Under the pieces are notes generated by a model, which was given only the letters and a program-made list of their open reading frames with translations, was not told the origin of the DNA and searched no databases. Source: Sphaerochaeta sp. Phil3 (GTDB taxonomy: Bacteria; Spirochaetota; Spirochaetia; Sphaerochaetales; Sphaerochaetaceae). Taken from it: DNA of 64,000 nucleotides. The stretch spans positions 62,001 through 126,000 of the forward strand of contig MSGT01000046.1 in NCBI GenBank assembly GCA_001940825.1, in the 5' to 3' direction. Below are positions 28,887-64,000 of this stretch, piece by piece (position 1 is the stretch's first letter; each line of letters opens with the position of its first letter). Made by a program: the position numbers and the translations under genes.

Positions 28887-31800
28887 GCTTTGATTTCTTC
28901 AATCTCCTCAAATAGTCCTGTAATGCTTTGGTCAAAAATCAGAATATTTGATTTGGTTATATCAAATCCTGCTTTTTTAGTTAGTTTTCCACAGGTTTTT
29001 GAACCGCCAATGGCTGTGAAGTCCGATTGTCCATTTCCTTCCATAGCATAATAGTTTAGTATTTCTCTAATAGCTTTACATCTTTCGAGAAGGCTCAGCT
29101 TTTCAAAAAGGCTTACTCCGTTTTCCAAGACGTCGCTCTGATTACCTGGTCTTTTGTTGTAGATTGGAGACTTACTCTTTTTCTGTAGTTCGCAATACAG
29201 GTCCAATGTGTTTTCCGTTGAGATTTTATCGAACTTTGGAGTTGGCTGTAGATCCTTGTTTTTTTCACTTTTTTTGAAAAATGATTCGATGTTCTTTACG
29301 GTTTGTTGCGATTGAGCAGATAAAACCAAAGGAACATTACTGCTCAATGTAAGAGCTTTTCCTCCAGTTGATTTTCCTGTAATTGCAAACAGGTACCCAT
29401 CAATCTTGAGCTGTGTATTGATCAATAGCTTGCTTCTGACGATGGTTGGATTGATAAGTCCCAATGTTGTTGAGCAATACTCCATGAGAGCACCAGGCTT
29501 TTCTAGGTGTTTTGCATCAATCATTGAGATTGGCACGAAGGATACGAATTTTTTGTTTTTCTCCTCATGCTTTATCACTGCGAAATGACTTGTTGCTAGG
29601 CTGTTATAACCACCATATTTTGATGTCCAGTCATCGTATGCTGATTCCTTGTTTTCAAAGTCTTCGATGGCGGATTGGAGTTTTTTGTCTGAAACTTTGG
29701 ATGGCAGAGTTCCTTTATTTGCCCCTTTCTTTACAAGTTGAATATCAAACAATTTCCCTTTCTTTGTTACCAGTTGTCTTGTAAATAGAATGTCATTTCT
29801 ATTCATGGTCTTTGCAACGACTGAGAGCGTTCCGGAAGCTCCTACTTTCCATGCATTCTTAACATCGAAATCAAAAAGCTTTGTGAGGTTGCCATAACCA
29901 TGTCCGTTTGCTTGTAGGTAGAAATTGCTTGAATACTTTGTATCGTAGACATTACCTACGACAATGTTGAGGTAGGCATCCTTTGCGTGGTGAAGGTCGT
30001 TCATTGAACGGCATTTTACGAACCCATACTGATTTCTGAAGTCTGAGACGTTTCTTGCTTTTGAGTAAACTACTTTTGTCTCTTCTCCAAATAAACTTTT
30101 CAAAGTATCCGTAACTTGTTTGACAGTTTGGCTGGTTTCTACAAGTTGTCGATTGATGAATCCATTGATTTCTTCGTCGGAAAGAGGGCTGTTTCTAACA
30201 AGCCTGTCATACTTCTCTTTTGGAATGAATTTCTTTTCGTACAAGAATTTCCAGAAGCTTTGCATTTTGGCTCTTATGAAATCATCGATAGGGTAGGCAT
30301 TGCTTTTTCTATTGTTCGTTGTCTTTTTGACAAGCACTCTATTTGTCAGGGAATCATCCTTTGTTCTAGACCGTGGGAAGATGTGGTCAATATCGTATTT
30401 GCTTATGTCGTAGATGTCTTCTATGTCGATTCTTTCTCCTGTGTACATGCATTTTCCGCATTGTGAGAAGTAAAGATATAGCTTATCTTGTCTAGACACG
30501 TCGCTTTCGCTTTTTTCTTCTAGTTTAGAGATTAACTCCCTTAATTCGTTGATGTAGTTCGAGTCTGTTTTCGTAGCATCTTTCAGCGTGTCAATCAACG
30601 TTTGTTTCCTTGAAACCGTTCTTTTCTTTTCCTGTTCGCTTCGTGTGACTTCAACGAAGACTTTTTGTGGGTTGTGTCCCATTATTCTGATAAGCTCATC
30701 AACGATTCTGAGAGTCTGCCAAGTTTCCTTTTTTACGGCAGGGGATACATACATTTCGTCAACTATCGAGTAGTCGAGTTTTCCAATGGTTTTTGGTTTT
30801 GTAATTTGTTCAATGAACTCATACTTGTTGCTTAGCAGCTCCATAAGGTTGTTCTGAGTCTCCCACAACATCCTCATGACTGACATGAGTTCTCCGGTTT
30901 CTTTGTTTATCGCTTGGATCTCATACAGGAACTTATGTGAGAAACGACCCCATCCTGCATACTTGAGCTTTGAGGTTTTATCTATCTCTTCCTTTGTCAA
31001 GACTTCTCCAAATTCGCGTTCTATGCGTTTTCTTAGCATGTCACCGCCCTCTGAGAAAACAGTTGCCCATTTTATAATCCTGTCAACGTCATCGGCTTTG
31101 AGCCTATGGCTTTCAAGAAAGTCTTTGAAGTCAAAGTATGATGAAAGTGATGCTTTTAAGTCTCCATCTATACCTGTTATGTCTTCTTTCTTGATTTTTC
31201 CAGAATACCAACAATTGTCATTGATATATTTTGTCAACTTGCTGATTGAGACTTTCTTTTCCTTCTTGAAAAGTTCATTGAAGATTTCTTGTTTCCTAGG
31301 AACTGAAAGTCTGTCTCCACAAATCCTTAGATTGTTCAGCTCGTTGAGTACCATATACTTGGAGTATTCCAGAGAGTTCTTTGGTAGGACGTCTTGGTCT
31401 TTGCAATATGTGCATTTATTTGTCATACGTTCTATGAACTTCTCAGCTGAAGACTCATAGTCGATCTTTTGTTCGATGTTCCAAGGTAGAACTCTTCCAG
31501 AGGTCTTTCTTTCAACCCAAGAATTCTTTCCTTTTGTTTCCTTTCCATAAGGATTGGATCCCAATGGTCCAACATAGTAGGGGACTCTAAACTTTAGGAG
31601 TTCCTTTATCTTTTCTGTTGCGGAGAAGCCATCTGGATCCTTCTTTTCAAGGAATTCGAAATTCTTTGAACAATTTGCCAGAATTGCATCCAATTCTATT
31701 TTGTTCATCTGGTAGGGGATCGTTCCATTTCTAAACGACTTGAGCAGAGGCATGAATGAGTCGTTTTCGATTGCATCTAGGATATGTTTGACATGTTCGT

Positions 31801-32965
31801 CGTCTTTTGGGACTTTCTCCAGAAGGTTTTTGATTTTCTTGTAGAACTCGTCTGTTCCAGTTCTTTTTACTCGTTTGACTACATGGTTACCATGGATTTT
31901 GCCTGTGTAGCTTGAATATGACCCTTTTTCATCTGAATGGAAAAAACTTTCGTATTTGTCAGGTGCATAGATCTTGATTGCTTCTTTTAGGTGTTTTAGA
32001 TCCGCCTTGTTACTGTCGAACAATTCTATCTTTGCATCTGATATGTATAAATGGCCACTCATTATGGAAGCAAGAAGAGTCCAGTCATATATTCCTTTCG
32101 CTGCTTTTATAAAAGCGAATTCCTCATCTGAAAGGCGGTCTTGTAGTTCTGGAAGGTCTGATTCTTCAAAAGATGCCTTTTTGAACTCAACGTCTGGAAT
32201 CTCGTCCCCTTCTTTTTTGAACAAAGTCGTTGTCTTTACCTTGTAGCCAAGAAGTATCCTGACTACCGATGCTTTGAGCTTTGTATCTGAAATTAGGATT
32301 TCTTTTTCTAGTTTCTCTTTTTTTTCAGAATTCCTTTTGCTCATCAAGGCTTCTTGAAGCTTTCCTATTGATGTGTACTCGAAAGTAGCATCATCAAAGA
32401 GTTCTTCGAAAACATTCTGGATGTCATCTACTAGAGGCTTAATTGATTCCACGGCTTTCATGCCTTCCCCAGGAAAGAGGAAATGGCCTCTGTTTTTGAG
32501 TATGTGCTGTATTCCTAGATACAGCAGTCTTGGATCCTTTATGTCTTCTGTCATTAGAGCTTTTCTCAAATGATATGCTGTTGGATAGATCTTGAAGAAA
32601 TCCTTGTCTTTGTAGTTCTTGTCGTTGAAAAGGATGTTCAGGTCTGGAGTTGTCTTGTCTTCAAGTATGTATTTGCTGTCGTTGAGGCGTATGAAGAACG
32701 TTGGATCGACTTTGCATATTTCTTCTGCAAAAATTTCCTGCAACAAAAGGATTCTCTTTCGCCTTCTTTCGAGTCTCCTCCTTGCTGTTCTGAAACCTCT
32801 TCGTCCAGCGGCGGTGTTGGCTTTTTCGAACAAGTGTGAACCCCACATCCTTTTACCATTGAATTTCAAGATGTTGTAGTTCGTGTCAGTTACAGCAAAG
32901 CCAACGGAGGACGTCCCGCAGTCCAATCCAATGTAGTAGTCGATGCTCTTCAAATCCTTATTCAC
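28883..32965 (-). CDS. cas9: CRISPR-associated endonuclease Cas9 (type II-A); GTG start reassigned to 32965
   Basis: RuvC-I 'YYIGLDCGTSSVGFAVTD', bridge helix 'RRGFRTARRRLERRRKRI', RuvC-II 'KVFVEVTRSEQ', HNH 'YDIDHIFPRSRTKDDSLTNRVLV', RuvC-III 'HHAKDAYLNIVVGN'; RBS GGAGG 7 nt upstream of GTG. Confidence 0.97.
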   Translation of the reverse strand: MNKDLKSIDYYIGLDCGTSSVGFAVTDTNYNILKFNGKRMWGSHLFEKANTAAGRRGFRTARRRLERRRKRILLLQEIFAEEICKVDPTFFIRLNDSKYILEDKTTPDLNILFNDKNYKDKDFFKIYPTAYHLRKALMTEDIKDPRLLYLGIQHILKNRGHFLFPGEGMKAVESIKPLVDDIQNVFEELFDDATFEYTSIGKLQEALMSKRNSEKKEKLEKEILISDTKLKASVVRILLGYKVKTTTLFKKEGDEIPDVEFKKASFEESDLPELQDRLSDEEFAFIKAAKGIYDWTLLASIMSGHLYISDAKIELFDSNKADLKHLKEAIKIYAPDKYESFFHSDEKGSYSSYTGKIHGNHVVKRVKRTGTDEFYKKIKNLLEKVPKDDEHVKHILDAIENDSFMPLLKSFRNGTIPYQMNKIELDAILANCSKNFEFLEKKDPDGFSATEKIKELLKFRVPYYVGPLGSNPYGKETKGKNSWVERKTSGRVLPWNIEQKIDYESSAEKFIERMTNKCTYCKDQDVLPKNSLEYSKYMVLNELNNLRICGDRLSVPRKQEIFNELFKKEKKVSISKLTKYINDNCWYSGKIKKEDITGIDGDLKASLSSYFDFKDFLESHRLKADDVDRIIKWATVFSEGGDMLRKRIEREFGEVLTKEEIDKTSKLKYAGWGRFSHKFLYEIQAINKETGELMSVMRMLWETQNNLMELLSNKYEFIEQITKPKTIGKLDYSIVDEMYVSPAVKKETWQTLRIVDELIRIMGHNPQKVFVEVTRSEQEKKRTVSRKQTLIDTLKDATKTDSNYINELRELISKLEEKSESDVSRQDKLYLYFSQCGKCMYTGERIDIEDIYDISKYDIDHIFPRSRTKDDSLTNRVLVKKTTNNRKSNAYPIDDFIRAKMQSFWKFLYEKKFIPKEKYDRLVRNSPLSDEEINGFINRQLVETSQTVKQVTDTLKSLFGEETKVVYSKARNVSDFRNQYGFVKCRSMNDLHHAKDAYLNIVVGNVYDTKYSSNFYLQANGHGYGNLTKLFDFDVKNAWKVGASGTLSVVAKTMNRNDILFTRQLVTKKGKLFDIQLVKKGANKGTLPSKVSDKKLQSAIEDFENKESAYDDWTSKYGGYNSLATSHFAVIKHEEKNKKFVSFVPISMIDAKHLEKPGALMEYCSTTLGLINPTIVRSKLLINTQLKIDGYLFAITGKSTGGKALTLSSNVPLVLSAQSQQTVKNIESFFKKSEKNKDLQPTPKFDKISTENTLDLYCELQKKSKSPIYNKRPGNQSDVLENGVSLFEKLSLLERCKAIREILNYYAMEGNGQSDFTAIGGSKTCGKLTKKAGFDITKSNILIFDQSITGLFEEIEEIKA

Positions 32966-32994
32966 TTGACAACCTCCAGTTCTCGTAATAATGT

Positions 32995-33100
32995 TTAGAC
33001 ATAACACGTCGTGTCAAAGTAAAGACATTACGTCAAAATCGCCCGAAAGGGTCTCCCGCTGTTGGGATTTTGAAAAGCCACCTGAACAGGGTGGTTTTTT
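32995..33100 (+). ncRNA. tracrRNA, antisense to cas9, with terminator
   Basis: 33001-33020 ATAACACGTC-GTGT-CAAAGT pairs with crRNA GCUUUG-GA-GACGUGUUAU (10-bp WC upper stem, 4:2 bulge, 6-bp lower stem); terminator CCACC-TGAACAG-GGTGG-TTTTTT. The 5' end is not defined. Confidence 0.93.
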
Positions 33101-46770: not shown

Positions 46771-46826
46771 GTGTAGGGCGTATTAGGGCGCATGACGGCG
46801 GACTACGGCGCACCAAGGCGCATCAG
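46771..46826. repeat. Period-10 degenerate array (GGCG every 10 bp), second locus
   Basis: gtgtagggcg/tattagggcg/catgacggcg/gactacggcg/caccaaggcg. Confidence 0.8.
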
Positions 46827-47042
46827 ATTTGTTTGGGAGAATCGCACCCACCCTTACATCACGGACTGCACGCACATCACGCACTACCCGTGCATCACGC
46901 ACGAAAACGCACTGTTTTGATTTGCATTCAGAAATTGTGAGCGAATTGTAATGATGGTGAGCGTGGTGAGTGTGGTGGGTTTGTAAGCATGGTGAGTGAT
47001 GTGTGATCGCAATGGTTGAATCTGTAACCAATCCGTAGAGGT

Positions 47043-47096
47043 TGTAGTGTTTGTGGCAGTTGTAGCGTCTGTAGCAGTTGTAGTGTACGTAGCAAA
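47043..47096. repeat. Period-9 degenerate array (TGTRGCNNN), second locus
   Basis: TGTAGTGTT TGTGGCAGT TGTAGCGTC TGTAGCAGT TGTAGTGTA CGTAGCAAA. Confidence 0.85.
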
Positions 47097-47253
47097 AGCA
47101 AGCGTCATGACACAAAAGCATTGCATTCCATAGGTAAAGCAGTGCGCCATAGTGCGCCCAGCTCGCCCAGTAAGCCCAGTCCGCCTCCCTCAAACGTACA
47201 AAAAAGCCAGCCTGCAATGATGCAAGCTGGCTCCAAAAGATCCCAAAGGATGT

Positions 47254-50944: not shown

Positions 50945-53900
50945 ATGGACTATAGATTACTATCAATAGGAGAGCTTTTCATGGGAGACAGAATGAGACC
51001 CGTTCCATTTGAGGAACTGATGGAAAGGATTTTTTCCGAGTACAGGAACCATGGCACCATATTTGGAATAAGCAAGGACGATTTCTACAAGCCGTCCGCA
51101 AAGCATTCGATCGAAGTCTTTGGCCAGAAGTGCGCCACACCGCTTGGCCCTGCGGCAGGTCCTCATACGCAGCTTGCACAGAACATCGTAAGCGCATACC
51201 TCGTGGGCGGCAGGTTCATGGAGCTCAAGACGGTTCAGATCATGGACCACTTGGAGATTGCAAAGCCTTGCATAGACGCAGGCGACGAAGGCCACAACGT
51301 AGAGTGGTCCACCGAGTACACCCTTGAGAAGGCTTTCGACGAGTACCTCAAGGCTTGGTTCGCCGTTCACGCTATCCAAGCGGCCCTTACGGGAAAGGCA
51401 TCCGAACCTGACTTCATATTCAACATGAGCGTTGGCTACAACCTTGAAGGAATCAAGCAGCCAAAGATGCAGACATATATAGACAACATGATGGATGCAT
51501 CGCGCAGCCCTCTCTTTGCACAGTACAAGGCGGCCCTCAAGGCCATGGTGGATGACGACGAGCTTCTCTGCGGCTCGGATCTGGAAGGCCATGCCAAGGC
51601 ACTTAGAGGCATAGAGGAGAGGATAAGCCCCGTCATCTGCAAGGGTGTCACGATCTCTACCATGCACGGCTGCCCTCCAAAGGAGATCGAGGCCATATGT
51701 TCCTACATGCTCACGGAGAAGCACCTCAACACGTTCGTCAAGCTCAACCCAACGCTTCTTGGATACGATGAAGTAAGGGCCATCCTCGACGACATCGGCT
51801 TTGGACATGTCGTCCTCAAGCGAGAGAGCTTTGAGCACGACCTCCAGTATACCGATGCCATTGCAATGCTGCACCGCTTGGTGGACCTTGCCAAGAAGGA
51901 AGGCCTTGGCTTTGGCGTCAAGCTTACGAACACCCTTGGCAACGTCAACGACGGCAAGGTGCTTCCTGGCGACGAGAGGTATATGTCCGGTAGGGCTCTT
52001 CTTCCAATCTCCACCAAGGTGGCTGCAAAGCTCAGTGCGGAGTTCGACGGCAAGCTTCCCGTTTCGTACTCCGGAGGGTGCACGATCTATTCCGTCAAGG
52101 ACATATTCGATACAGGCATAAGGCCCATCACGTTGGCAACCGACATGCTCAAGCCAGGTGGATACGCAAGGATGGCGAGGATGGCGGAGCTCTTGGAAAA
52201 GGAGAGCAAGTCTTGGAACCGCAAGGACATAGATCCAAAAGCGGTCCAGGAGCTTTGCGAAAAGGCACGCACCGTGGAGTATTCCCAGAAGGCTTTCCGT
52301 GGAGATGCGAAGGCCAAGGTTTCTGATACGCTTCCTCTTTTCAACTGCTATGTCTCTCCTTGCATGCAGGCCTGTCCAATACATCAGAACATCCCTGACT
52401 ACGTAGGCCTTGTTGGCGAGGGACGCTATGCAGAGGCTTTGGATGTCATCTATCAGGAGAACGCACTTCCAAACATCACATGCAACATATGCGACCATCA
52501 GTGCCAGTTCCACTGCGCCAGAATGGACTACGAGGGCGCCGTAAGAATAAGGGACATGAAGAAGATCGCCGTCGAGAACGGCACCGAGGAGTACATGGAG
52601 AAGCTTTGGTCCGCTCCTGGTCAGCCTGCCGATGTTAAGGCCGCTGTCATAGGTGCAGGTCCTGCGGGTCTTTCCGCTGCATATTTCCTTGCCCGTTCAG
52701 GTTTCGATACCACCATCTTCGAGCGCGAGCAGAACGCAGGCGGTGTGGTTGCGAACATAATCCCAACGTTCAGGATCGATCCAAAGGCCGTTCAGGCTGA
52801 CATCGACTTCGTAGCAGCCCATGGTGTGAAGTTCAACTATGGCGTCAAGCTTGAGGATGTCACAATAAAGGCCCTTAAGGATGCAGGGTACGAGTTCATC
52901 TACTACGCCGTTGGAAGCGAAAAGGACAACAGAATCTCCGTAGAGGGAGACGAGAAGGCCGTAGTCGGCGCACTTGAGTTCCTTGAAGCCTTCAAGAACG
53001 ACAAGGCCCTTGATGTGCTTGGAAGGAACGTCGTCGTCACGGGTGGTGGAAACACCGCAATGGACAGCGCAAGGGCTGCGAAGAGGACTGAGGGCGTGGA
53101 GAACGTCACAGTCGTCTACAGAAGGACTGAGAAGGAGATGCCGGCAGACCATGAGGAGTACCTCCTTGCCAAGGAAGACGGCGTTGATTTCGTGTTCCTT
53201 GCAAATCCAAAGAAGATTGGAGACGGCAGGCTTGTATGCACGAAGATGGCCCTTGGCGAGCCCGATGCCTCTGGAAGGCGCAGACCGGTGGAGACTGAAG
53301 AGACCATTGAGATCCCTTGCGACGTCCTCCTTACCGCAATTGGCGAACATGCAGACAGCGAAGCCCTCACTTGGTACGGCGTACCTGTGAACGAGAAGGG
53401 CTGGCCTGTCGTGGATGCAGATACGAACGAAACCCCTGTCGAGGGCGTATACGCAATTGGAGATGTCCAGAGCGGACCTTCCACGGTTGTAAGATGCATT
53501 GCATCGGCACGCAAGGCCGTAGAGGCCACGATAGACAAGGTCCTTGACGAGATCAAGGACGCCGAGTGCTGCGACGACGACTGCGACTGCTGCGACCACG
53601 ATGGCTGTCACGATGACTGCTGCTGCGGACACGACGACTGCCATGACGGCTGCGACCATGACGATTGCTGCCATGACCACCACGACTGCGGCTGTGGATG
53701 CGACGACTGCTGCGATGACGGTTGCGACGAAGACGAAGAAGAGGACGAGGCCTATCTTGAGGCAGAGGACAAGTTCTTCAAGGACATCCAGTATAGAAAG
53801 ACCCATATCTGCACGGACTGCAAGACCCCATGTGCCGGCAAGGCGTTCGCAGAGCAGGAGGCCAAGCGCTGCATGGACTGCACATACCTTTGCAACAAGT

Positions 53901-54280
53901 GCGTCGATGTATGTCCAAACCGCGCCAACGTGGCCATTGACATGAGGTTCTCGGATGCAACGGAAGACCCGTTCCAGATCCTTCATATAGATGCATTCTG
54001 CAACGAATGCGGAAACTGCGCCACGTTCTGCAACCACAATGGAAGACCGTACAAGGACAAGTTCACGGTATTCAGCAGACGCGACGACTTTGACGACAGC
54101 ACCAACAGCGGCTTCTATGTAGAAGGTGACAGCGTCCTTGTCAGACTTGAAAGAAAGGTCATAGAGTGCAGCATAGATGGGGATGGAAACCTCGTTGGAG
54201 ACGTCCCTGAGCTTGTACGTGACATCATCGAGCAGGTATTCATCTGCTACGACTACCTTCTTACAAGGGTTGAGGAGTAA
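50945..54280 (+). CDS. ygfK: YgfK-like putative selenate reductase / NAD(P)H-Fe-S oxidoreductase with Cys/His/Asp-rich insertion
   Basis: DHOD-like N-terminus, 'NITCNICDHQCQFHCARMDYEG', FAD motif 'AAVIGAGPAGLSAAYFLARSGF', C-terminal ferredoxin 'CMDCTYLCNKCVDVCPNRAN'. Confidence 0.88.
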   Translation: MDYRLLSIGELFMGDRMRPVPFEELMERIFSEYRNHGTIFGISKDDFYKPSAKHSIEVFGQKCATPLGPAAGPHTQLAQNIVSAYLVGGRFMELKTVQIMDHLEIAKPCIDAGDEGHNVEWSTEYTLEKAFDEYLKAWFAVHAIQAALTGKASEPDFIFNMSVGYNLEGIKQPKMQTYIDNMMDASRSPLFAQYKAALKAMVDDDELLCGSDLEGHAKALRGIEERISPVICKGVTISTMHGCPPKEIEAICSYMLTEKHLNTFVKLNPTLLGYDEVRAILDDIGFGHVVLKRESFEHDLQYTDAIAMLHRLVDLAKKEGLGFGVKLTNTLGNVNDGKVLPGDERYMSGRALLPISTKVAAKLSAEFDGKLPVSYSGGCTIYSVKDIFDTGIRPITLATDMLKPGGYARMARMAELLEKESKSWNRKDIDPKAVQELCEKARTVEYSQKAFRGDAKAKVSDTLPLFNCYVSPCMQACPIHQNIPDYVGLVGEGRYAEALDVIYQENALPNITCNICDHQCQFHCARMDYEGAVRIRDMKKIAVENGTEEYMEKLWSAPGQPADVKAAVIGAGPAGLSAAYFLARSGFDTTIFEREQNAGGVVANIIPTFRIDPKAVQADIDFVAAHGVKFNYGVKLEDVTIKALKDAGYEFIYYAVGSEKDNRISVEGDEKAVVGALEFLEAFKNDKALDVLGRNVVVTGGGNTAMDSARAAKRTEGVENVTVVYRRTEKEMPADHEEYLLAKEDGVDFVFLANPKKIGDGRLVCTKMALGEPDASGRRRPVETEETIEIPCDVLLTAIGEHADSEALTWYGVPVNEKGWPVVDADTNETPVEGVYAIGDVQSGPSTVVRCIASARKAVEATIDKVLDEIKDAECCDDDCDCCDHDGCHDDCCCGHDDCHDGCDHDDCCHDHHDCGCGCDDCCDDGCDEDEEEDEAYLEAEDKFFKDIQYRKTHICTDCKTPCAGKAFAEQEAKRCMDCTYLCNKCVDVCPNRANVAIDMRFSDATEDPFQILHIDAFCNECGNCATFCNHNGRPYKDKFTVFSRRDDFDDSTNSGFYVEGDSVLVRLERKVIECSIDGDGNLVGDVPELVRDIIEQVFICYDYLLTRVEE
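53567..53749 (+). other. Low-complexity Cys/His/Asp-rich insertion within ygfK
   Basis: Translation CCDDDCDCCDHDGCHDDCCCGHDDCHDGCDHDDCCHDHHDCGCGCDDCCDDGCDEDEEEDE: 19 Cys and 8 His in the first 53 residues, counted directly. Confidence 0.95.
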
Positions 54281-54283
54281 GGC

Positions 54284-55645
54284 ATGACGACCGTTATCAG
54301 AAACGCAAGGGTCATACAGACCATGGATCCAGTGGAGGTCCTCGAAGGTGTAGACATCGTAGTCGTTGACGATCTCATAAGGGCTGTTGGCAGAAACGCC
54401 GGCAGCCAGGTGAAGGCTGACAAGGTCATAGAGGCTGAAGGCAAGACCGTAATACCAGGCATGATATGCGGGCACCATCACTACTACAGCGGACTTAGCC
54501 GTGGAATGCAGATCTCTGCAGGTCCCCAGACGGACCTCATCCAGATCCTCAAGGAATGGTGGTGGCGTCTTGACAGGGCTTTGGACGAGGAGTCCCTCTA
54601 CTACAGTTCCCTGATATGCACACTTGATGCAATAAAGAACGGCACTACCACCTGTATAGACCATCATGAGAGTCCTAACTACATCTCCGGCTCCCTTTCC
54701 ACGATTGCAAAGGGAATGGAGAGGTTCGGGCTCAGGGGAATCGTTGCATACGGAATCACGGACCGCAACTACGGCATGAAGGAGATAAAGGCTGGAGTCG
54801 AGGAAGGCATAAGGTTCGCAAAGGAAGTCGATGACAGGAAGAAGCGCGGCGAGAACGTAATGTGCCAGGCAATGGTAGGCGGACATGCTCCATTCACCAT
54901 CCCTGAAGAGGGAATGGAGATGCTTGCAGACTCTGCGCGCCAGACCGGACGTGGAGCGCACATCCATGTCGCAGAGGGCGAGTACGACCAGGTGTGGTCG
55001 CACCATTTCTACAACATGGACATCCTTGACAGGCTGGACAAGCATGGACTACTTGCCGACAACACTCTCCTGGTGCATGGAATCTACCTCAACGAGCATG
55101 AGATAGACCTTCTCAACGAGAGAGGCTGCTACCTTGCGCACAATCCAAGAAGCAACATGAACAACGAAGTCGGCTACAGCAAGTACCTTCCAAAGGTCAG
55201 GAACCTCATCCTTGGAACCGATGGCTGCGGAAGCAACATGTTTGAGGAAAGCAAGATTGCATTCTTCAAGAACCGCGATGCAAACGGTCCGTATTGGCCG
55301 GGCGACTACATGAGGGCCCTCACTAGAGCCAACACCTTCATTGAAAAGTATTTCGTAGGCGACAGGTTTGGAAGGATAGAGCCTGGCTACAAGGCTGACC
55401 TGGACATCATCACATACCAGAACCCAACGCCGCTTAATGCAGGCAATGCAGCCGGACACTTCGTTTGGGGCATGAGCAGCAACTGCGTCGAGTCCGTCAT
55501 GATCAATGGAAAGCTGGTCATGGAGAATAGACAGTTCGACTTCGATGAGAAGGAGATCTACGCAAAGGCTGCAGAGGTTGCAAAGAAGGTCTGGGAAAGG
55601 ACCGACGCCCTCAAGGCCGATGGAACTAGCGGTATAGTCAGATAA
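54284..55645 (+). CDS. ssnA: SsnA-like aminohydrolase
   Basis: 'VIPGMICGHHHYYSGLSRGM', 'GTTTCIDHHESPN', 'HVAEGEYDQ', 'LGTDGCGSNMFEE'; directly after ygfK. Confidence 0.9.
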   Translation: MTTVIRNARVIQTMDPVEVLEGVDIVVVDDLIRAVGRNAGSQVKADKVIEAEGKTVIPGMICGHHHYYSGLSRGMQISAGPQTDLIQILKEWWWRLDRALDEESLYYSSLICTLDAIKNGTTTCIDHHESPNYISGSLSTIAKGMERFGLRGIVAYGITDRNYGMKEIKAGVEEGIRFAKEVDDRKKRGENVMCQAMVGGHAPFTIPEEGMEMLADSARQTGRGAHIHVAEGEYDQVWSHHFYNMDILDRLDKHGLLADNTLLVHGIYLNEHEIDLLNERGCYLAHNPRSNMNNEVGYSKYLPKVRNLILGTDGCGSNMFEESKIAFFKNRDANGPYWPGDYMRALTRANTFIEKYFVGDRFGRIEPGYKADLDIITYQNPTPLNAGNAAGHFVWGMSSNCVESVMINGKLVMENRQFDFDEKEIYAKAAEVAKKVWERTDALKADGTSGIVR

Positions 55646-55772
55646 CTGTTTTTCCTGTATTATTTCTATGCGTGCCGCAGTATGACGATTGACTTCATGC
55701 TGCGGTCTACGTTTCATTTTGGAATGCCATTGTGTTTTTCAAGAATCAATGGTATCTACGGTTGGAGGAACG

Positions 55773-57935
55773 ATGGTTGCACATGACATCTCCAAGGCTG
55801 TGAGAAGGCTTGATGCGGTATCCAAGAGCGAAGGGTCCGTCAAGTACATAGCCGACTATGGATTCGAGGATTGCCTTTGGGGACGGCTCGTCCGTTCAAG
55901 CATCCCAAGGGGAATCATCAAAGACATAAAACTGCCTGAAATGCCTGACGGCTATAGGTTCATAACCTACAAGGACATCCCTGATGGTGGCCACAACTAC
56001 CTTCATATGATAGCGACGGACTGGAAGTGCTTTGCAGAAAACGATGTAAGGTACGTTGGCGAGACCATTGGAATAATCGTTGGGCCTGACAGGACCATCG
56101 TAGAGGACCTTAGGGAAAAGATAGTCATAGAATACGAAGAGCAGGAACCGGCGGTATCCATAGACGACGGCCTTGCCTGCAAGGGCGGTGCGTTCATAAA
56201 CGACGACAACATCCACTGCCATCTCAAGCTTGAGGTGGGAAATGTCGATGAGGCGTTCAGAAAGGCTGACAGAATCGTTGAGGAGACCATTGAGACGGGC
56301 TTCCAGGAGCATGTCTACCTTGAGACCAACGGTGCATGCTGCATGCCTGACGGCGATGGATACAAGATATATGCATCAGCCCAGTGTCCGTTCTACATAA
56401 GGAAGTCCATAGCTCCGCTTTTGAACATAGACCCTTCAAAGATATCGGTCCAGCAGACCACGACCGGTGGGGCCTTTGGTGGAAAGGAGCACTTCCCGGA
56501 TGTCGTGTGCGGACCTCTTCTACTTGCCGCCTACGTGATGAAGAAGGGCGTCAAGATGATATTCGACAGGGAGGAGGACATAGAGAACTCCGTCAAGAGA
56601 CACCCTTCCAAGACTGTTTTCAGGACAGGCCTTGACAAAGACGGCAATATTGTGGCCATGGACAGCAAGGTCTACTACAACGTTGGCGGATACCTTTCGT
56701 CTTCGTTCGTCGTTCTCCAGAGAGGATGCTTCCATGTAACGGGTTGCTACGAGTTCCCAAACATGAGGACAGAGGGCTTTGGCGTTGCCACCAACACATA
56801 TCCAAGCTGTGCTTTCAGAGGCTTTGGAGCTCCTCAGACGCTGTTTGCGGTGGAGACCCACATGTGTCACATTGCAGAGATGCAGGGCTTGGACCCTCTT
56901 GAGTATAAGAAGAGATACTTCATAAAGCAGGGTGGAACAACAAGTACGAACGGAAAGATCGTTGAGAAGGTCATGATACCTGAAATGCTTGATCAGGTGC
57001 TCAAGGCAAGCGACTACGAACGAAAGGCCAAGGAATACAAGTGGGGCAGTGGAAAGGGCATTGGAATCTCCTTCTACAACCACGGCGGCGCATTCACTGG
57101 AAACGGAGAGCAGGCCATAATCAAGGGCCGTGCAAAGCTCCACAAGTTCAAGGACGGCACGGTGGAGATTCTCTGCAGCCAGACGGAGATGGGGCAGGGC
57201 TTCCATACTATCCTTCCAAAGATAGCCGCTCATATACTTGAGATCCCTATAGAGAAGGTCATATTCAAGGACCCTGACACATCAAGGGTCCCTGACTCAG
57301 GCCCTACAGCCGCATCGCGTTCCACCATGATCGTAGGCGAACTCGTAGAAAGGGCCGCAACGCTCATGAAGCCACGCTACGACAAGGAAGAGGAGTTCGA
57401 GGTCGAGACCCAGTACGAGCATCCGGATGGATACCCTTGGGATCAGTCAACGTTCCAAGGATATGCATATCTTGGCTATGGCTGGGGTGTGTGCGCCGTT
57501 GAGGTTGAGGTCGATCCTTGCACCGGTGAAGTGACGACCAAGGGCGTGTGGTCAAGCCATGACTGCGGACACCTCATAGATGAGATGATAGTCCATGGAC
57601 AAGTCAACGGCGGGGTGCTGCAGGGAATAGGATGGGCATCCACGGAGGTGCTCAAGAATGTAGGAGGGCACTTCAAGCAGACATCCATGAGCGACTACAT
57701 AGTCCCAACGTCAATGGATTGTCCAAAGCAGGGAGTCTCGTTTGTGGAAAACCCATACGAATGGGGTCCGTTTGGAGCCAAGGGCATGGGAGAACTTGTA
57801 TTCAATGGAAGTGGGGCTGCATACATAGATGCACTTTCTCGTGCCATAGGAAAGCGCATAACGGCCATTCCTGTTCCAACTGAGGACGTTATGGGCTACA
57901 TGCTCAATGGAAAGGACCTAAAGGAGGCTCTTTGA
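55773..57935 (+). CDS. Xanthine dehydrogenase-family molybdopterin-binding subunit
   Basis: 'TTTGGAFGGKEHF', 'SCAFRGFGAPQTLFAVETHM', 'GPFGAKGMGEL'; start behind GGAGGAACG. Confidence 0.9.
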   Translation: MVAHDISKAVRRLDAVSKSEGSVKYIADYGFEDCLWGRLVRSSIPRGIIKDIKLPEMPDGYRFITYKDIPDGGHNYLHMIATDWKCFAENDVRYVGETIGIIVGPDRTIVEDLREKIVIEYEEQEPAVSIDDGLACKGGAFINDDNIHCHLKLEVGNVDEAFRKADRIVEETIETGFQEHVYLETNGACCMPDGDGYKIYASAQCPFYIRKSIAPLLNIDPSKISVQQTTTGGAFGGKEHFPDVVCGPLLLAAYVMKKGVKMIFDREEDIENSVKRHPSKTVFRTGLDKDGNIVAMDSKVYYNVGGYLSSSFVVLQRGCFHVTGCYEFPNMRTEGFGVATNTYPSCAFRGFGAPQTLFAVETHMCHIAEMQGLDPLEYKKRYFIKQGGTTSTNGKIVEKVMIPEMLDQVLKASDYERKAKEYKWGSGKGIGISFYNHGGAFTGNGEQAIIKGRAKLHKFKDGTVEILCSQTEMGQGFHTILPKIAAHILEIPIEKVIFKDPDTSRVPDSGPTAASRSTMIVGELVERAATLMKPRYDKEEEFEVETQYEHPDGYPWDQSTFQGYAYLGYGWGVCAVEVEVDPCTGEVTTKGVWSSHDCGHLIDEMIVHGQVNGGVLQGIGWASTEVLKNVGGHFKQTSMSDYIVPTSMDCPKQGVSFVENPYEWGPFGAKGMGELVFNGSGAAYIDALSRAIGKRITAIPVPTEDVMGYMLNGKDLKEAL

Positions 57936-58426
57936 TGGAATGTAAGGAATACAAGATCGAGTTCACTTTGAACGGAAAGCCAGTAAGCATAGCCACAAAC
58001 CCTCTAAGACGGCTCATTGACGTTCTAAGGGATGACTTTGGATGCCTTGGAGTCAAGGAAGGCTGCAGCGAGGGCGAGTGCGGGGCATGTTCCATACTCA
58101 TGAACGGAAGGGTCGTTACGCCTTGTCTCATTCCAGTGGGTGCTGCAAACGGTCAGGACATAATGACCATTGAAGGCATAAAGGAGACTGAGAAAGGGTC
58201 GATCATAGTTCAGGCGTTCGCTGACGGCGGAGCCGTGCAGTGTGGTTTCTGCATCCCTGGAATGGTGATTGCTGCATATTATCTCCTTTCAAGGAACCCA
58301 AATCCAACCGAGGACGAGATAAGGCTTGGAATCAGCGGAAACATTTGCCGCTGCACGGGCTACGACCTCATAGTAGAGAGCATAAAGCTTGCCGCCAAGA
58401 GGGGAGGTGAGATATGGAAGAGATGA
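57932..58426 (+). CDS. Xanthine dehydrogenase-family 2Fe-2S subunit
   Basis: 'GVKEGCSEGECGACSILMNG', 'QCGFCIPGMVIAAYYLLSRNPNPTEDEIRLGISGNICRCTGY' with all eight cluster cysteines. Confidence 0.95.
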   Translation: MMECKEYKIEFTLNGKPVSIATNPLRRLIDVLRDDFGCLGVKEGCSEGECGACSILMNGRVVTPCLIPVGAANGQDIMTIEGIKETEKGSIIVQAFADGGAVQCGFCIPGMVIAAYYLLSRNPNPTEDEIRLGISGNICRCTGYDLIVESIKLAAKRGGEIWKR

Positions 58427-59331
58427 TGTGCTACATTCCAAAGACGCTTGAAGAAGCCCTTGAGATAAAGTCCAGGCACGATGTCATAGTCCTTGCAGGT
58501 GGGAGCGACCTCATGGTCTCCAACAAAAGGACCTTGGGCCTTGCACCAAAGTTCGACAAACCTGTAATGATAGTCAGGAACCTTCCCGAACTCAGAGGCA
58601 TATACATAAACGAAGAGGGCGAGTGCTGCATAGGAGCAGGTTGCACCAGTGCGCAGATTGCAGAAAGCACCCTATGCCCGTGGCACCTCAGACAGGCAGC
58701 ATCCAGAATGGGAGCCGTCGCCCTCAGAAACAGCGCCACCATTGCCGGAAACATTGCAAACGCATCCCCAAAAGGCGATACTCCGGGTCCGTTGTACATG
58801 CTTGACGCCAGAGTCAAGCTCAGTTCCGTTTCAGGCAGCAGGGAGATTCTTGTCAGCGATTTCATCGTCAAGTTCAGAACCATCGACCTAAGGCCGGACG
58901 AAATGATAACAGAGGTCATAGTGCCGCTTTCAGAGGACGACTTCGACTACGTGTTCTGGCACAAGGTGGGTACCCGCAAGGCCAATGCAATAAGCAAGAT
59001 AACCCTAAGCCAGGCCATCAAATTCAATGCCGATGGTACTGTGAAGGACTACAGGGTGGCCGCCACCGCGACCGGTGCAAAGACCAACCGCAGTCGTGAT
59101 GTTGAGTCCATCATCATTGGAAAGCGCCTTTCACCGGAACTCATAGAGGACGTGATCAAAGGCTTCGACGACGTGATCTCCCCTCGTGCCATGCCTGAGT
59201 TCAGGCGTGAGGCCACGCGTAGGATGATAAGGCGTTTCCTTAACGTTGCGGACACCCATCCAGAGGGAAAGGTCATAGATACCTACGATGGATACTACGT
59301 CGTAGGACAGCCTGAGCCAAGAGTGTTGTAG
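58414..59331 (+). CDS. Xanthine dehydrogenase-family FAD-binding subunit
   Basis: 'VLAGGSDLMV', 'RNSATIAGNIANASPKGDTPGPLYML'. Confidence 0.92.
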   Translation: MEEMMCYIPKTLEEALEIKSRHDVIVLAGGSDLMVSNKRTLGLAPKFDKPVMIVRNLPELRGIYINEEGECCIGAGCTSAQIAESTLCPWHLRQAASRMGAVALRNSATIAGNIANASPKGDTPGPLYMLDARVKLSSVSGSREILVSDFIVKFRTIDLRPDEMITEVIVPLSEDDFDYVFWHKVGTRKANAISKITLSQAIKFNADGTVKDYRVAATATGAKTNRSRDVESIIIGKRLSPELIEDVIKGFDDVISPRAMPEFRREATRRMIRRFLNVADTHPEGKVIDTYDGYYVVGQPEPRVL

Positions 59332-59358: not shown

Positions 59359-60741
59359 ATGAACGAAAGAGGAATACTACTTAAAGGCATATACGCACTT
59401 ATGACGAACCCTGAAAAGGATACGTTGTATGGGGTGGACATGCTCATTGAGGATGGCAAGGTTAAATCCATAGGAAAAGGCCTTGTCGCACCCCAGGACT
59501 ACAGAGTCATAGACGGTTCAAAACTGGCCGTTGTCCCTGGCTTTGTGAACACACACCACCATTTCTATCAGACTCTTACGAGAAACCTTCCTGCGGTGCA
59601 GGATGCAAAGCTCTTTGACTGGTTGGTGTATCTCTATGAAGTATGGAAATACATAGACGAAGAGGCTATATACTACTCATCTTTGCTTGCAATGACTGAG
59701 CTTTTGAAAACAGGTTGCACCTGTTCTACTGACCATCACTATGTGTTCCCTAGGCAGTGCAAGGGTCAGGATCTCACAGGAGCCCAGTTCAAGGCGGCCG
59801 ATAGGCTTGGGATGAGGTTCTCCCCGACACGTGGAAGCATGAGCCTTTCGAAGAAGGACGGAGGCCTTCCCCCTGATACCGTGGTGCAGACCGAGGACGA
59901 AATCCTTGAGGACTCCGAGCGCGTCATAAAGCTCTACCACGACCCATCGCCAATGGCAATGCACAAGATTGTGCTTGCTCCATGCTCCCCGTTCTCAGTC
60001 ACCAAGCGCTGTATGCTTGAAAGCGCAAGGCTTGCTCGTAAATACGGAGTGCGTCTCCACACCCATCTTTGCGAGACCATGGACGAAGAAGACCAGTGCA
60101 AGGCCATGTATGGAATAAGACCGGTGGAGCTCATGCAGGAATGCGAACTCATTGGAAACGATGTGTTCTACGCCCATGGAATATGGTTCAACGACGATGA
60201 ACTCAAGCTCCTTGCAAAGACCGGAAGCCATGTTGCCCACTGTCCATCCTCTAACATGAGGCTTGGATCTGGAATCTGCCGTACAAGGGAGCTTTTGGAC
60301 CTTGGAGTGAACGTTGGAATAGCCGTAGACGGCAGTGCCTCGAACGACAGCTCCGACATGCTTGCAGAGATGCGCAATGCGCTTCTCCTTGGCAGGGTGA
60401 AATACGGCAGCACTGCCCTTACAGCCCGTGACGTATTCAAGATGGGAAGCGAGAACGGAGCCAAGATGCTCAACTTTGGCAACGTTGGAAGACTTGAGGA
60501 AGGCTGGGCCGCAGACCTTGCATGTTTCGATGTATCGGGCATAGCATATGCAGGAAGCCACAGCGACCCAATAGCGGCCCTTCTTTTCTGTGGCTGCGAC
60601 CATACGGCGCAGTATACAATCGTCAATGGACAGGTTGTCGTGGACAATAGAAAGGTCGTTGGTGTGAACGAACAGGAGCTTGCAGACAAGGCCAACAGGA
60701 TAAGCGCAGGACTTCTTGAGAAGAGGAGGGTCTATGGTTGA
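59359..60741 (+). CDS. Amidohydrolase, 8-oxoguanine deaminase/hydroxyatrazine aminohydrolase-like
   Basis: 'VVPGFVNTHHHFYQTLTRNLPAVQDAKLFDWLVYLYEVW', 'HTHLCETMDEE', 'VGIAVDGSASNDSSDML'. Confidence 0.88.
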   Translation: MNERGILLKGIYALMTNPEKDTLYGVDMLIEDGKVKSIGKGLVAPQDYRVIDGSKLAVVPGFVNTHHHFYQTLTRNLPAVQDAKLFDWLVYLYEVWKYIDEEAIYYSSLLAMTELLKTGCTCSTDHHYVFPRQCKGQDLTGAQFKAADRLGMRFSPTRGSMSLSKKDGGLPPDTVVQTEDEILEDSERVIKLYHDPSPMAMHKIVLAPCSPFSVTKRCMLESARLARKYGVRLHTHLCETMDEEDQCKAMYGIRPVELMQECELIGNDVFYAHGIWFNDDELKLLAKTGSHVAHCPSSNMRLGSGICRTRELLDLGVNVGIAVDGSASNDSSDMLAEMRNALLLGRVKYGSTALTARDVFKMGSENGAKMLNFGNVGRLEEGWAADLACFDVSGIAYAGSHSDPIAALLFCGCDHTAQYTIVNGQVVVDNRKVVGVNEQELADKANRISAGLLEKRRVYG

Positions 60742-61588
60742 GAACCTTATAATAGCCAAGAACATAGCAGAAGCCGTTTCATGCAAGGTTTCATGCAAGG
60801 CTTCATGCAAGGAGAGCTCCGCCTACCTTGCAGGAGGGACGGAGATAAACAGACTCAATGGCACGGTGAATGCATCCACTTTGGTTTCCATTGGAAGGAT
60901 AGCTGAGCTTGACGGAATGTCTGTGGTTGACGATCCACGAAAGGGCTCGTGCGCCACAGCCTCAAGATTCCTTAGGATTGGCTCCATGTGCACGTTCCAG
61001 GAAATCGTTGAATCCAACGATGCTCCCCAGTGGCTCAAGGATGCCAGCCGTTTCATGGCATCGCGCACCAAGCGCAACATGGCTACCATTGGTGGAAACG
61101 TAGCCCTCATGAGGGACGATTCGTACCTCTATGCAACCCTTCTTGCCGCAGGTTCCCTCCTTGAGCTCGTGGACATAGAGGGCAACACCATGTTCAGGTG
61201 CACCAGAAAGTACATGAACGAGCACGAATCGTTCAAGGATTGCCTCATAGCCGCTGTACTTGTTCCAATGAATGCAGTCGTGGCATCAAGGCGCTATGCA
61301 AATACCGCTGAAAGCCATGCTGTCCTCACTATGGGGGCGGGCATTGTCAACGGAGAACTTAGGCTTGCAGCCGCCCTCAAGGGTACCGGAGTTTTCCTCA
61401 TGCCTCATCTTTCAGAGCTCATTTCAAATGGCGCAACGGAGGACGAAGTCCTTGATGCGGCAAAGAACCACAGCGGAGTGGAGGTCAAGTCAGACATGTT
61501 CGGGGGCGAAGCATACAAGAGGTATCTTCTTGGAGTCACCGCATACGACCTTGCAAAGAAGGTCCTTTCACAGGGAGGAAGCAGATGA
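60734..61588 (+). CDS. ygfM: YgfM-like FAD-binding subunit
   Basis: 'AYLAGGTEINRLNG', 'RNMATIGGNVALMRDDSYL'; start at ATG behind GGAGGG; between amidohydrolase and xdhD-like gene. Confidence 0.82.
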   Translation: MVENLIIAKNIAEAVSCKVSCKASCKESSAYLAGGTEINRLNGTVNASTLVSIGRIAELDGMSVVDDPRKGSCATASRFLRIGSMCTFQEIVESNDAPQWLKDASRFMASRTKRNMATIGGNVALMRDDSYLYATLLAAGSLLELVDIEGNTMFRCTRKYMNEHESFKDCLIAAVLVPMNAVVASRRYANTAESHAVLTMGAGIVNGELRLAAALKGTGVFLMPHLSELISNGATEDEVLDAAKNHSGVEVKSDMFGGEAYKRYLLGVTAYDLAKKVLSQGGSR

Positions 61589-64000
61589 GAGTCGATTGCA
61601 TAATCAACGGAAGAGGAAGGAGCTTTGACGTAGAGCCTTCCATGAAGCTCAGGGAGATGCTTCTTCTCAACGGCAACCTGGCCGTGCGCGACAGCGACGA
61701 TGCAGAGGGCTTCTGCGGAAGCGACACCGTCCTTGTGGATGGAACCCCAGTCTTTTCCAACCTCGTCCTTGCGGGAGAGGTCCAGGGCTGTGAGATAAGG
61801 ACACCTGACGGCCTTGGAGACCCCAGACACCTTACGGTCGTCCAGCAGGCCATGATAGATGCAGGCATAGTCCAAAGTGCATACAACGCGCCGGCTGCGG
61901 CCCTTCTTCTCACATGGCTTCTTGAGAACAACCCAAATCCAACCAAAGAGGACATAAAGGACGCGCTTTCAGGCATCTTCATAAGGGATGCAGGCTATGA
62001 GCACTACTATCTTGCAGTCAAGCTTGCACAGGAGAAGATGAAGGACGGCAAATACTCGACAACCATAGCCCCTTCGTTCAGACCTGAATGCGAGTACATT
62101 GGAAAGCCAATGTCCAAGATAGACGGAGCCCAGCTCGTAACCGGCGACAAGGCCTTCGTTGAGGACTACGTTCCATCCGATGCCTGCCACATGGTCGTCC
62201 TTAGAAGCCCACATGCAAGTGCATACATAAAGTCCATAGATACAAGCGAGGCTGAGAAGGTGGAGGGTGTCATCTCCATCCTCACCGCATACAATACGCC
62301 TGACACCCATTACATGCAGGCGGGCCAGGGCAATCCTGAGCCATCCCCACACGACAGAAGGCTCTTCAACCTCAAGGTAAGGCACGTTGGAGACAGGGTG
62401 GCTGCAGTCATAGCCGAGACCTTGGAGGAGGCGAAGGCTGCGTGCAAGCTCATAAAGGTTGAGTACGAAGTGCTTCCTGCGGTCTTCACTGTAGAGGAGG
62501 CGATGGCGCCAGGGGCCCCTGCGGTACATGACGGCATAGTCGAATACAGAGCCGGCGCACCTGCTGACCTTGATGAATATAACAAGGCCTCAAAGGATCC
62601 CCGCGAAGGCAAGGTCATCTACCAGTTCCCTCTTGGAGGGGACATAAGGCACAACGTGGCTGCCTCCAACAAGGGGCACATAGGTGATGTGGAGAAGGCC
62701 TTCAATGAGTCCGATGCCGTTGTGGAATGCACGTATCAGACAAGCCAAATCCAGCATACTCCTCTTGAGACGCATATATGCTTTGCAAAGATGGAAGGCC
62801 AGAGGCTCGTCGTCTATGCCTCGACCCAGGTTCCATACCATGTAAGGAGAATCGTGGGGTGGGTCACAGGGCTTCCTGAAAACAGGATCCACGTCATAAA
62901 GACACGCGTAGGCGGTGGCTACGGCTCAAAGCAGGACATCCTCATAGAGGACCTTACAGGCTATGCTGCGTTCGTGACTGGAAAGCCTGTGCTTTGCCAC
63001 AACACAAGGGAGGAGGAATTCATTGCCAACTCCACACGCCACCCAATGAGGGTCCGTGTGAAGATGTCTGGAAACAAGGATGGTCAGATCACCGGAATCT
63101 TCATGGAGGTGTGCGCAAACACAGGCCCTTACGGCAACCACTGCCTTACAGTTCCAATGAACAGCTGCTCGAAGACGCTGCCGCTTTTCAAAGTGGACAA
63201 CATGGCATACGACCTCAAGGTGTTCTATACCAACACTCCACCTGCTGGCGCATACCAGGGCTATGGCACTCCAAAGGGCACATACGGCCTCATGATGGCG
63301 ATGGCCCTTCTTGCAGAGAAGCTTGGCATAGACTACAAGGACATGGTGCTCAAGAACCACGTAGAGGAAGGCTACATGCTTGAAATCCTCAAGGGTCTTG
63401 GGGAAGGAAGGGAAGGTGCTGTCGTTCCAGTTGGCTCCTGCGGTCTTGACGAAGCCATAAGAAAGGGCTGCGACATGATAGAGTGGGGCAAGAAGGAGGT
63501 CTCAAGCGATCCTGACTGGAAGATTGGAAAGGGCTTTGCAATGATAATGCAGGGTTCAGGCCTTCCTGGCCTTGACCACGCAGAGGCCATAGCAAAGCTT
63601 GAGACTGATGGCACAATCATCCTCAACAGCGGTGGAGCTGACCTTGGAACGGGCCTTGATACGATATCGGCCAAGATAGTGGCTGAAGTCCTCAAGGTCC
63701 CAATGGATAGGATAACGGTCGTCTCCGGCGATACCGACTCCTGTGCGTTCGACACTGGAGCATACGCTTCATCTGGTACGTTCTTCAGTGGAAATGCATC
63801 CCTTGAAGCCTGTAAGAAGCTCAAGGATATGATCATAAAGGAATCGGCCTATCAGATGGGTGAGGACGAGGGCGACCTTGAGATCCGCTTCCCGGGTGAG
63901 GTCTACTCCAAGAAGACGGGCAAGGTGCTTTCCTACTATGAGCTGTCCCATACTGCGTGCAGCGGTGGCGGCCATGGTCAGATGATAGCCCACGGGACGT
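61585..64000 (+). CDS. xdhD: XdhD-like molybdenum hydroxylase (fused degenerate 2Fe-2S domain + Mo-binding domain), 3' truncated by window; absent from ORF track
   Basis: ATG 61585 after GGAGGAAGCAG; open frame to window end; 'VGGGYGSKQDILIEDL', 'PAGAYQGYGTPKGTYGLMMAMALLAEKL', 'SGGADLGTGLDTISAKIVAEVLKVP', 'GAYASSGTFFSGNA'. Confidence 0.9.
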   Translation, partial: MRVDCIINGRGRSFDVEPSMKLREMLLLNGNLAVRDSDDAEGFCGSDTVLVDGTPVFSNLVLAGEVQGCEIRTPDGLGDPRHLTVVQQAMIDAGIVQSAYNAPAAALLLTWLLENNPNPTKEDIKDALSGIFIRDAGYEHYYLAVKLAQEKMKDGKYSTTIAPSFRPECEYIGKPMSKIDGAQLVTGDKAFVEDYVPSDACHMVVLRSPHASAYIKSIDTSEAEKVEGVISILTAYNTPDTHYMQAGQGNPEPSPHDRRLFNLKVRHVGDRVAAVIAETLEEAKAACKLIKVEYEVLPAVFTVEEAMAPGAPAVHDGIVEYRAGAPADLDEYNKASKDPREGKVIYQFPLGGDIRHNVAASNKGHIGDVEKAFNESDAVVECTYQTSQIQHTPLETHICFAKMEGQRLVVYASTQVPYHVRRIVGWVTGLPENRIHVIKTRVGGGYGSKQDILIEDLTGYAAFVTGKPVLCHNTREEEFIANSTRHPMRVRVKMSGNKDGQITGIFMEVCANTGPYGNHCLTVPMNSCSKTLPLFKVDNMAYDLKVFYTNTPPAGAYQGYGTPKGTYGLMMAMALLAEKLGIDYKDMVLKNHVEEGYMLEILKGLGEGREGAVVPVGSCGLDEAIRKGCDMIEWGKKEVSSDPDWKIGKGFAMIMQGSGLPGLDHAEAIAKLETDGTIILNSGGADLGTGLDTISAKIVAEVLKVPMDRITVVSGDTDSCAFDTGAYASSGTFFSGNASLEACKKLKDMIIKESAYQMGEDEGDLEIRFPGEVYSKKTGKVLSYYELSHTACSGGGHGQMIAHGT

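What the first reader, a model, noticed from the sequence alone, without database searches (positions are those of the whole stretch)
53567..53749. Cys/His/Asp-rich metal-binding-like insertion inside YgfK
Between the FAD/NAD(P)H-oxidoreductase part and the C-terminal ferredoxin domain lies about 61 aa with 19 Cys, 8 His and runs of Asp/Glu (CCDDDCDCCDHDGCHDDCCCGHDDCHDGCDHDDCCHDHHDCGCGCDDCCDDGCDEDEEEDE). I do not recall this in E. coli YgfK. Its TGC-GAC-CAC-GAT-like codon repetition suggests expansion by slippage. In a protein tied to selenium-dependent molybdenum hydroxylases, it could buffer metal (Fe, Ni, Zn, Cu) or bind selenium species.
Basis: partly seen in the sequence, partly recalled or inferred. 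Interest (0 to 1): 0.75.

Follow-up and report, generated by a model that had tools for sequence, protein, structure and literature searches.

The report
Metal-binding-like insert in YgfK
A gut spirochaete's purine-degrading enzyme YgfK carries, between its flavin part and its iron-sulphur part, a floppy stretch made only of cysteine, histidine, acidic residues and glycine; most species of the family Sphaerochaetaceae have their own version at the same spot, so it is probably a built-in metal-binding buffer, although no metal binding has been measured.

Summary
Window 53567-53749 lies in frame inside ygfK (1111 aa, TIGR03315) and encodes 61 residues made only of D23, C19, H8, G6, E5. No other stop-free 60-aa stretch in the six frames of the window comes near it. 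It is not a one-off. YgfK of most Sphaerochaetaceae (94 of 123 usable genomes have at least 3 Cys) carries a Cys/His/acidic linker at exactly this place, hypervariable in length and sequence, often built on C-x-C-G-H-x-H repeats. E. coli, Salmonella, Enterococcus, Collinsella and other Spirochaetota lack it. The window's species seems to have kept an ancestral trait that the six other comparable species of its genus lost. In closely related pairs every Cys/His is conserved (76/76) while codons change synonymously, so selection acts on the peptide. The same composition occurs on other proteins of the family (a TPR protein, a NifX-like protein, a P-type ATPase). Best reading: a flexible transition-metal-binding module (SlyD-tail-like in action, not in ancestry) built into the yanthine reductase of the reductive urate pathway, possibly buffering Zn2+ for its partner SsnA (inferred). 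A selenium role is not supported; nickel-hydrogenase maturation is unlikely. Metal identity and binding are untested.

The parts
50945..54280 (+). ygfK, 1111 aa: N-terminal part (FMN/substrate half according to published modelling of E. coli YgfK), Fer4_20 (aa 466-548), FAD/NAD(P)H domain (aa 565-861), insert (aa 875-935), C-terminal ferredoxin-like domain (about aa 950-1060)
   Evidence: TIGR03315 1391.9 bits; Pfam Fer4_20 and Pyr_redox_2; PDB relatives NfnL, GltD and DPD over aa 421-866
53567..53749 (+). Cys/His/Asp/Gly/Glu-only insert, 61 aa, 19 Cys and 8 His, between the FAD/NAD(P)H domain and the C-terminal ferredoxin domain
   Evidence: Direct reading; family-wide counterpart linkers; unstructured in a weak AlphaFold model, pLDDT about 30
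53804..53834 (+). HICTDCKTPC segment: extra Cys pairs just after the insert and before the RCMDC ferredoxin motif, a feature of this genus
   Evidence: Sequence; relatives read HLCTDCKSCSSC or HLCEKCKSFESC here
54284..55645 (+). ssnA, metal-dependent aminohydrolase that acts on the YgfK product; starts 3 bases after the ygfK stop codon
   Evidence: TIGR03314 523.8 bits, cut-off 455.5; coupling to YgfK in PMC12507026
49214..50683 (-). pyridoxal-phosphate enzyme read as ygeX-like (2,3-diaminopropionate ammonia-lyase), last step of the urate pathway
   Evidence: ORF; assignment from sequence recognition and from the place of ygeX in known uricolytic clusters, not profile-tested here
55761..59331 (+). 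three subunits of a xanthine-dehydrogenase-type molybdenum hydroxylase (Mo, 2Fe-2S and FAD subunits)
   Evidence: NCBIfam XdhA, XdhC, XdhB and TIGR03311 matches
59359..60741 (+). 8-oxoguanine-deaminase-like amidohydrolase (metal-dependent superfamily)
   Evidence: PRK08203 570.4 bits, cut-off 532
60731..64000 (+). second FAD subunit (60731-61585) and the start of a fused Fe-S/Mo subunit (61585 to the window end, open), together resembling YgfM-XdhD
   Evidence: TIGR03312 match to the FAD subunit; open ORF, assignment of the latter by reading

Best explanation
The insert is an intrinsically flexible, transition-metal-binding linker inside YgfK, the NAD(P)H-dependent yanthine reductase of the reductive uric-acid pathway. 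The linker position is structural (FAD domain to ferredoxin domain) and is nearly always acidic in this family. In most Sphaerochaetaceae it has been turned into a multi-ligand module by amplification of Cys-x-Cys-Gly-His-x-His-type units; in the window's species this has become a 27-ligand stretch that could hold several divalent ions (Zn2+ most likely, Fe2+, Co2+ or Ni2+ possible) with fast exchange and little fixed structure, as the SlyD tail does. Most likely use: a local metal buffer that keeps metal close to the enzymes working with YgfK, first of all SsnA, which is encoded next to it and must act together with it. Shown here: presence, position, family-wide recurrence, conservation of the ligands. 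From the literature: YgfK activity, its coupling to SsnA, metals added in assays. Inferred: metal binding, the identity of the metal, delivery to SsnA.
For: Recurrence at the same site: of 123 usable family genomes, 94 have at least 3 Cys and 92 have C+H of at least 6 in the linker. Non-random arrangement across the family: CxCG 139 observed against 14 +/- 3.7 in shuffled linkers, CGH 106 against 17 +/- 4.2, HxH 304 against 167 +/- 9.7. Selection on the ligands: in gap-free close pairs 76/76 Cys/His identical, against 167/193 Asp/Glu and 84/107 others, while 15 of the 76 ligand codons changed synonymously; insert pN 0.10 against pS 0.68 over 28 pairs. The same motif sits in other proteins of the family: the P-type ATPase of G119, a NifX-family protein of the window's genus, a TPR protein found in 139/141 genomes with tails up to C14 H34. 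Metal-dependent partners: E. coli YgfK shows activity only with SsnA, assayed with ZnCl2, YgeY with CoCl2, and YgfK needs 4Fe-4S reconstitution (PMC12507026); ssnA starts 3 bases after ygfK here. [quoted passage not shown]
Against: No binding data. Window copy: the arrangement of its Cys/His does not differ from a shuffle of its own residues, so it does not show the clean family motif. The six comparable species of the same genus, some basal family members (g3, g22) and YgfK of E. coli, Enterococcus and Collinsella do without it, so it is not needed for catalysis. Nothing ties it to zinc rather than another metal, and the link to SsnA rests on gene order and in vitro coupling only.
Confidence: 0.6

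Rival explanations
1. Acidic flexible spacer: the linker only has to be long, acidic and floppy so that the ferredoxin domain can reach its partner; Cys and His are tolerated passengers of repeat expansion with no metal function.
For: Nearly all family linkers are acidic, including those without Cys/His, such as AEVASEQEEDYEEISEEVTEIPEDEEYLEKEEAFF in G133. Length varies from near 0 to 83 aa. The window copy's ligand order is like a shuffle.
Against: Cys/His are the most conserved residues of the linker in close pairs (76/76), and CxCG/CGH are 6 to 10 times over-represented. The same motif appears on unrelated proteins of the family.
Confidence: 0.2
2. Fe2+ or Fe-S assembly aid: the Cys/His region holds iron for building or repairing YgfK's own 4Fe-4S clusters, which flank it on both sides.
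For: The insert lies between the cluster-bearing Fer4_20 region and the C-terminal ferredoxin-like domain. E. coli YgfK has to be reconstituted with 4Fe-4S (PMC12507026). SlyD has been tied to Fe-S biogenesis (PMC10653786).
Against: Other phyla make the same clusters without it. His-rich versions with 0-2 Cys (G099, G111) are poor iron-sulphur ligands.
Confidence: 0.12
3. Selenium handling: thiols carry selenium (perselenide or selenotrisulfide) for the selenium-dependent molybdenum hydroxylase encoded in the same cluster.
For: The window's genome has selD and yqeB. A raw count links fewer than 3 linker Cys with absence of selD (Fisher p = 1e-4).
Against: With phylogeny accounted for, 12 independent selD differences come with a linker difference in about 1. 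G026 has one of the two most Cys-rich linkers (19 Cys, 11 His) yet no selD or yqeB match in an 88% complete genome. Many linkers are dominated by His, which is not expected to carry selenium. The catalytic role of E. coli YgfK is known and is not selenium metabolism.
Confidence: 0.05
4. Nickel storage and delivery for hydrogenase maturation, as for SlyD/HypB.
For: Composition resembles nickel-binding tails; a few family genomes have hypB.
Against: hypB found in only 20 of 141 family genomes and not in the window's own.
Confidence: 0.03

Closest known systems
YgfK (TIGR03315), yanthine reductase of the reductive uric-acid pathway (E. coli b2878; PMC12507026)
   Same: Full-length family member next to ssnA in a purine-degradation cluster; same domain order
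   Different: E. coli, Salmonella, Enterococcus and Collinsella proteins have a short linker with 0-4 Cys and 0-3 His; here 61 extra residues with 19 Cys and 8 His
C-terminal metal-binding tail of SlyD (E. coli) and the histidine-rich ends of UreE and HypB
   Same: Unstructured, Cys/His/Gly/Asp-rich, rapidly evolving sequence attached to a folded protein
   Different: Internal linker of a redox flavoenzyme, richer in Cys and Asp, no FKBP domain, no hypB in this genome
Nfn / GltD / dihydropyrimidine dehydrogenase electron-transfer modules
   Same: FAD/NAD(P)H plus Fe-S module, 24-36% identity over about 400 residues
   Different: The matched region ends just before the insert, so no solved relative covers it
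Metallothioneins
   Same: Many Cys per residue and many possible ligands
   Different: Part of a large enzyme, mixed Cys/His/Asp, no Pfam metallothionein match

Membership tests
YgfK (TIGR03315) | Score above the curated whole-protein cut-off of 835.3 bits | tested here: met
   1391.9 bits, E = 0
YgfK (TIGR03315) | Neighbourhood of the reductive urate cluster (ssnA, Xdh subunits) | tested here: met
   ssnA TIGR03314 523.8 bits directly downstream; Xdh-type subunits follow
YgfK (TIGR03315) | NAD(P)H-dependent reduction of yanthine | not testable with these tools
   Shown for the E. coli protein only (PMC12507026)
SlyD metallochaperone | FKBP-type prolyl isomerase domain | tested here: not met
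   No such Pfam match in the 1111 aa
SlyD metallochaperone | Unstructured Cys/His-rich metal-binding stretch | tested here: inconclusive
   Composition and low pLDDT fit; the model is weak overall (mean pLDDT 62) and no binding was measured
Metallothionein | Match to a curated metallothionein profile / small free-standing Cys-rich protein | tested here: not met
   No Pfam match; internal to a 1111-aa enzyme
Selenium carrier of the SDMH system | Gain and loss together with the selenium gene selD | tested here: not met
   12 independent pairs differing in selD, linker differs in about 1
Nickel chaperone for hydrogenase | Presence of hydrogenase maturation (hypB) in the same genomes | tested here: not met
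   20 of 141 family genomes, absent from the window's genome

The most novel reading that the evidence does not exclude
In an entire bacterial family a central catabolic flavoenzyme has a built-in, fast-evolving metal reservoir that loads the metal-dependent enzyme acting on its product, so that metal supply and urate breakdown are physically coupled; the same Cys/His units are spread over several unrelated proteins as a family-wide metal-buffer system.
Probability: 0.15. Interest if true: 0.75.

Novelty: new variant of a known kind. Interest (0 to 1): 0.5.

Why it matters
Cys/His-rich metal tails are known on metallochaperones and transporters. An internal one, at a fixed site of a purine-catabolic redox enzyme and kept across most of a family of gut spirochaetes, was not found described in the papers searched here. 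If it binds metal, it would link metal availability in the gut or rumen to bacterial urate breakdown, a step of interest for gout, and it gives a natural series (species with 0 to about 30 ligands at one site) for testing what such tails do.

Tried and rejected
Assembly artefact or strain-specific oddity: rejected as a general account, since independent and single-contig genomes have the same kind of linker at the same site. Pure DNA slippage without selection: rejected for the family by synonymous change with fixed ligands. Selenium role: the raw correlation with selD (p = 1e-4) disappeared in independent pairs. Nickel hydrogenase: hypB rare and absent here. Selenocysteine in YgfK (some matches were reported with an in-frame TGA): in the 17 loci checked, the stop lies just upstream of the start codon in all but two; L064 has a mid-gene TGA, not pursued, and L144 is truncated. 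Structure: the allowed alignment was shallow (17 rows), so the model is good mainly for the FAD domain and says nothing beyond 'no fold' for the insert. Literature searches for an earlier description of the trait found none.

Full report
WHAT IS THERE. The ORF 50945-54280 (+) encodes 1111 aa and is YgfK (TIGR03315, 1391.9 bits against a cut-off of 835.3). Pfam places Fer4_20 at aa 466-548 and the FAD/NAD(P)H domain at aa 566-854; PDB relatives by sequence and fold are NfnL, GltD and dihydropyrimidine dehydrogenase over aa 421-866. The reported stretch 53567-53749 is in frame and consists only of Asp 23, Cys 19, His 8, Gly 6, Glu 5. It lies between the FAD/NAD(P)H domain and the C-terminal ferredoxin-like domain. 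In the whole window no other frame has more than 19 Cys+His in 60 stop-free codons, against 27 here; the genome has no second copy.

WHERE IT COMES FROM. The genome belongs with Sphaerochaetaceae, judged by named relatives from rumen and horse faeces. YgfK was matched in 133 of 141 genomes of the family. Reading the linker between two fixed anchors shows Cys/His/acidic stretches at the same site in most of them, with very different sequences: ECSCGHHHEHGEECSCGHHHDEE (G042), GCGCGHDHDHDHECTCEDGC (G104), CDCGCHDHDDE repeated (G007), CCCGNHDEGCCCNHGHSHDECGC (G026). Of 123 usable genomes, 94 have at least 3 Cys. YgfK of other Spirochaetota, E. coli, Salmonella, Enterococcus and Collinsella has short linkers with few or no such residues. 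On a YgfK tree built without the linker, the window's species is sister to the six other species of its genus with a readable linker, all of which have acidic linkers without Cys/His; the neighbouring genera g4, g8, g15 and g19 are Cys-rich (one g15 species excepted). The simplest history is an old family trait kept here and lost in the rest of the genus; over the tree at least 8 changes of state are needed.

IS IT SELECTED. Across the family CxCG occurs 139 times against 14 +/- 3.7 after shuffling each linker, and CGH 106 against 17 +/- 4.2. For 28 close pairs the insert has pS 0.68 and pN 0.10 (rest of the gene 0.48 and 0.05). In the pairs whose linkers align without gaps, all 76 Cys/His are identical, against 167/193 acidic and 84/107 other residues, while 15 of the 76 ligand codons changed synonymously. 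This argues for selection on the peptide. The window copy itself is not distinguishable from a shuffle of its own residues, so for this species the argument rests on the family. Third-position usage in the insert (TGC 17, TGT 2; GAC 19, GAT 4) is similar to the rest of the gene (TGC 28, TGT 4; GAC 54, GAT 27), and only short imperfect repeats are left. Length differences such as longer and shorter HD runs in G092, G093 and G104 show that repeat expansion does occur.

WHAT IT PROBABLY DOES. The composition and the CxCG-HxH unit are those of transition-metal ligands. A pattern search over the 141 genomes found the motif mostly in YgfK, and otherwise in a TPR protein present in 139 of 141 genomes with a hypervariable Cys/His tail (up to C14 H34), in a NifX-family protein of the window's genus, in a P-type ATPase and in a protein with a DUF6930 match; a share of the single matches is chance. 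E. coli YgfK is the NAD(P)H-dependent yanthine reductase, active only together with SsnA; the assays contained ZnCl2 for SsnA and CoCl2 for YgeY, and the 4Fe-4S clusters of YgfK had to be reconstituted (PMC12507026). In the window ssnA begins 3 bases after ygfK. I therefore take the insert for a flexible metal-binding buffer, most likely zinc, possibly serving SsnA. Metal binding, the metal and the delivery step are inferred, not shown.

ALTERNATIVES TESTED. Selenium: the genome has selD and yqeB, and a raw count links Cys-poor linkers with lack of selD, but in 12 phylogenetically independent pairs the linker differs in about one. One genome without a listed selD result (G122) was taken as lacking it by elimination. 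Nickel hydrogenase: hypB in 20 of 141 genomes and not in this one. An acidic spacer without metal function remains the main rival, because acidity is the feature common to nearly all linkers of the family. Selenocysteine was excluded for the loci checked, apart from one unexplained mid-gene TGA in L064.

LIMITS. The AlphaFold model is weak outside the FAD domain (mean pLDDT 62). Groups outside Spirochaetota were seen only as single examples. The genus-level statement rests on six relatives with a readable linker, several of them incomplete genomes. The 28-pair identity counts use alignments that favour Cys and His matches; the gap-free subset avoids this.

Noticed in passing
25900-26991: Repeat array with a 36-nt repeat (GCTTTAGATATCTACAAAATAACACGTCTCCAAAGC) at about 66-nt spacing, looks like a CRISPR array; a 1374-aa ORF lies at 28883-33007 on the minus strand, perhaps Cas9.
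   Followed up: no
L215, L271, L272, L275, L214 (TPR protein); own copy in L263: A TPR-repeat protein found in 139 of 141 Sphaerochaetaceae genomes has a C-terminal tail that varies between species from no Cys/His to C14 H34; the window's genome has a short His-only version.
   Followed up: partly
L288, L289, L290, L292: NifX-family (Nitro_FeMo-Co) proteins with Cys/His-rich tails in other species of the window's genus; no match in the window's own genome.
   Followed up: partly
60776-60812: 12-nt tandem repeat at the start of a Xdh-type FAD subunit, giving SCKVSCKASCKESS.
   Followed up: no
52697-55045 (-): 782-aa open frame antisense to ygfK and ssnA, including an Ala/Val-rich antisense reading of the insert; probably a shadow of codon bias.
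   Followed up: no
46783-47217 (-): Small ORF rich in His and Cys over a repeat-rich stretch (second-best Cys/His window, 19 in 60 aa); likely not a gene.
   Followed up: no
G111, G112, G113, G117, G118 (other genomes of the family): yqeB is present but no selD match was found, three of them in 1-2 contigs; either selD is lost while the SDMH maturation gene stays, or the match was missed.
   Followed up: no
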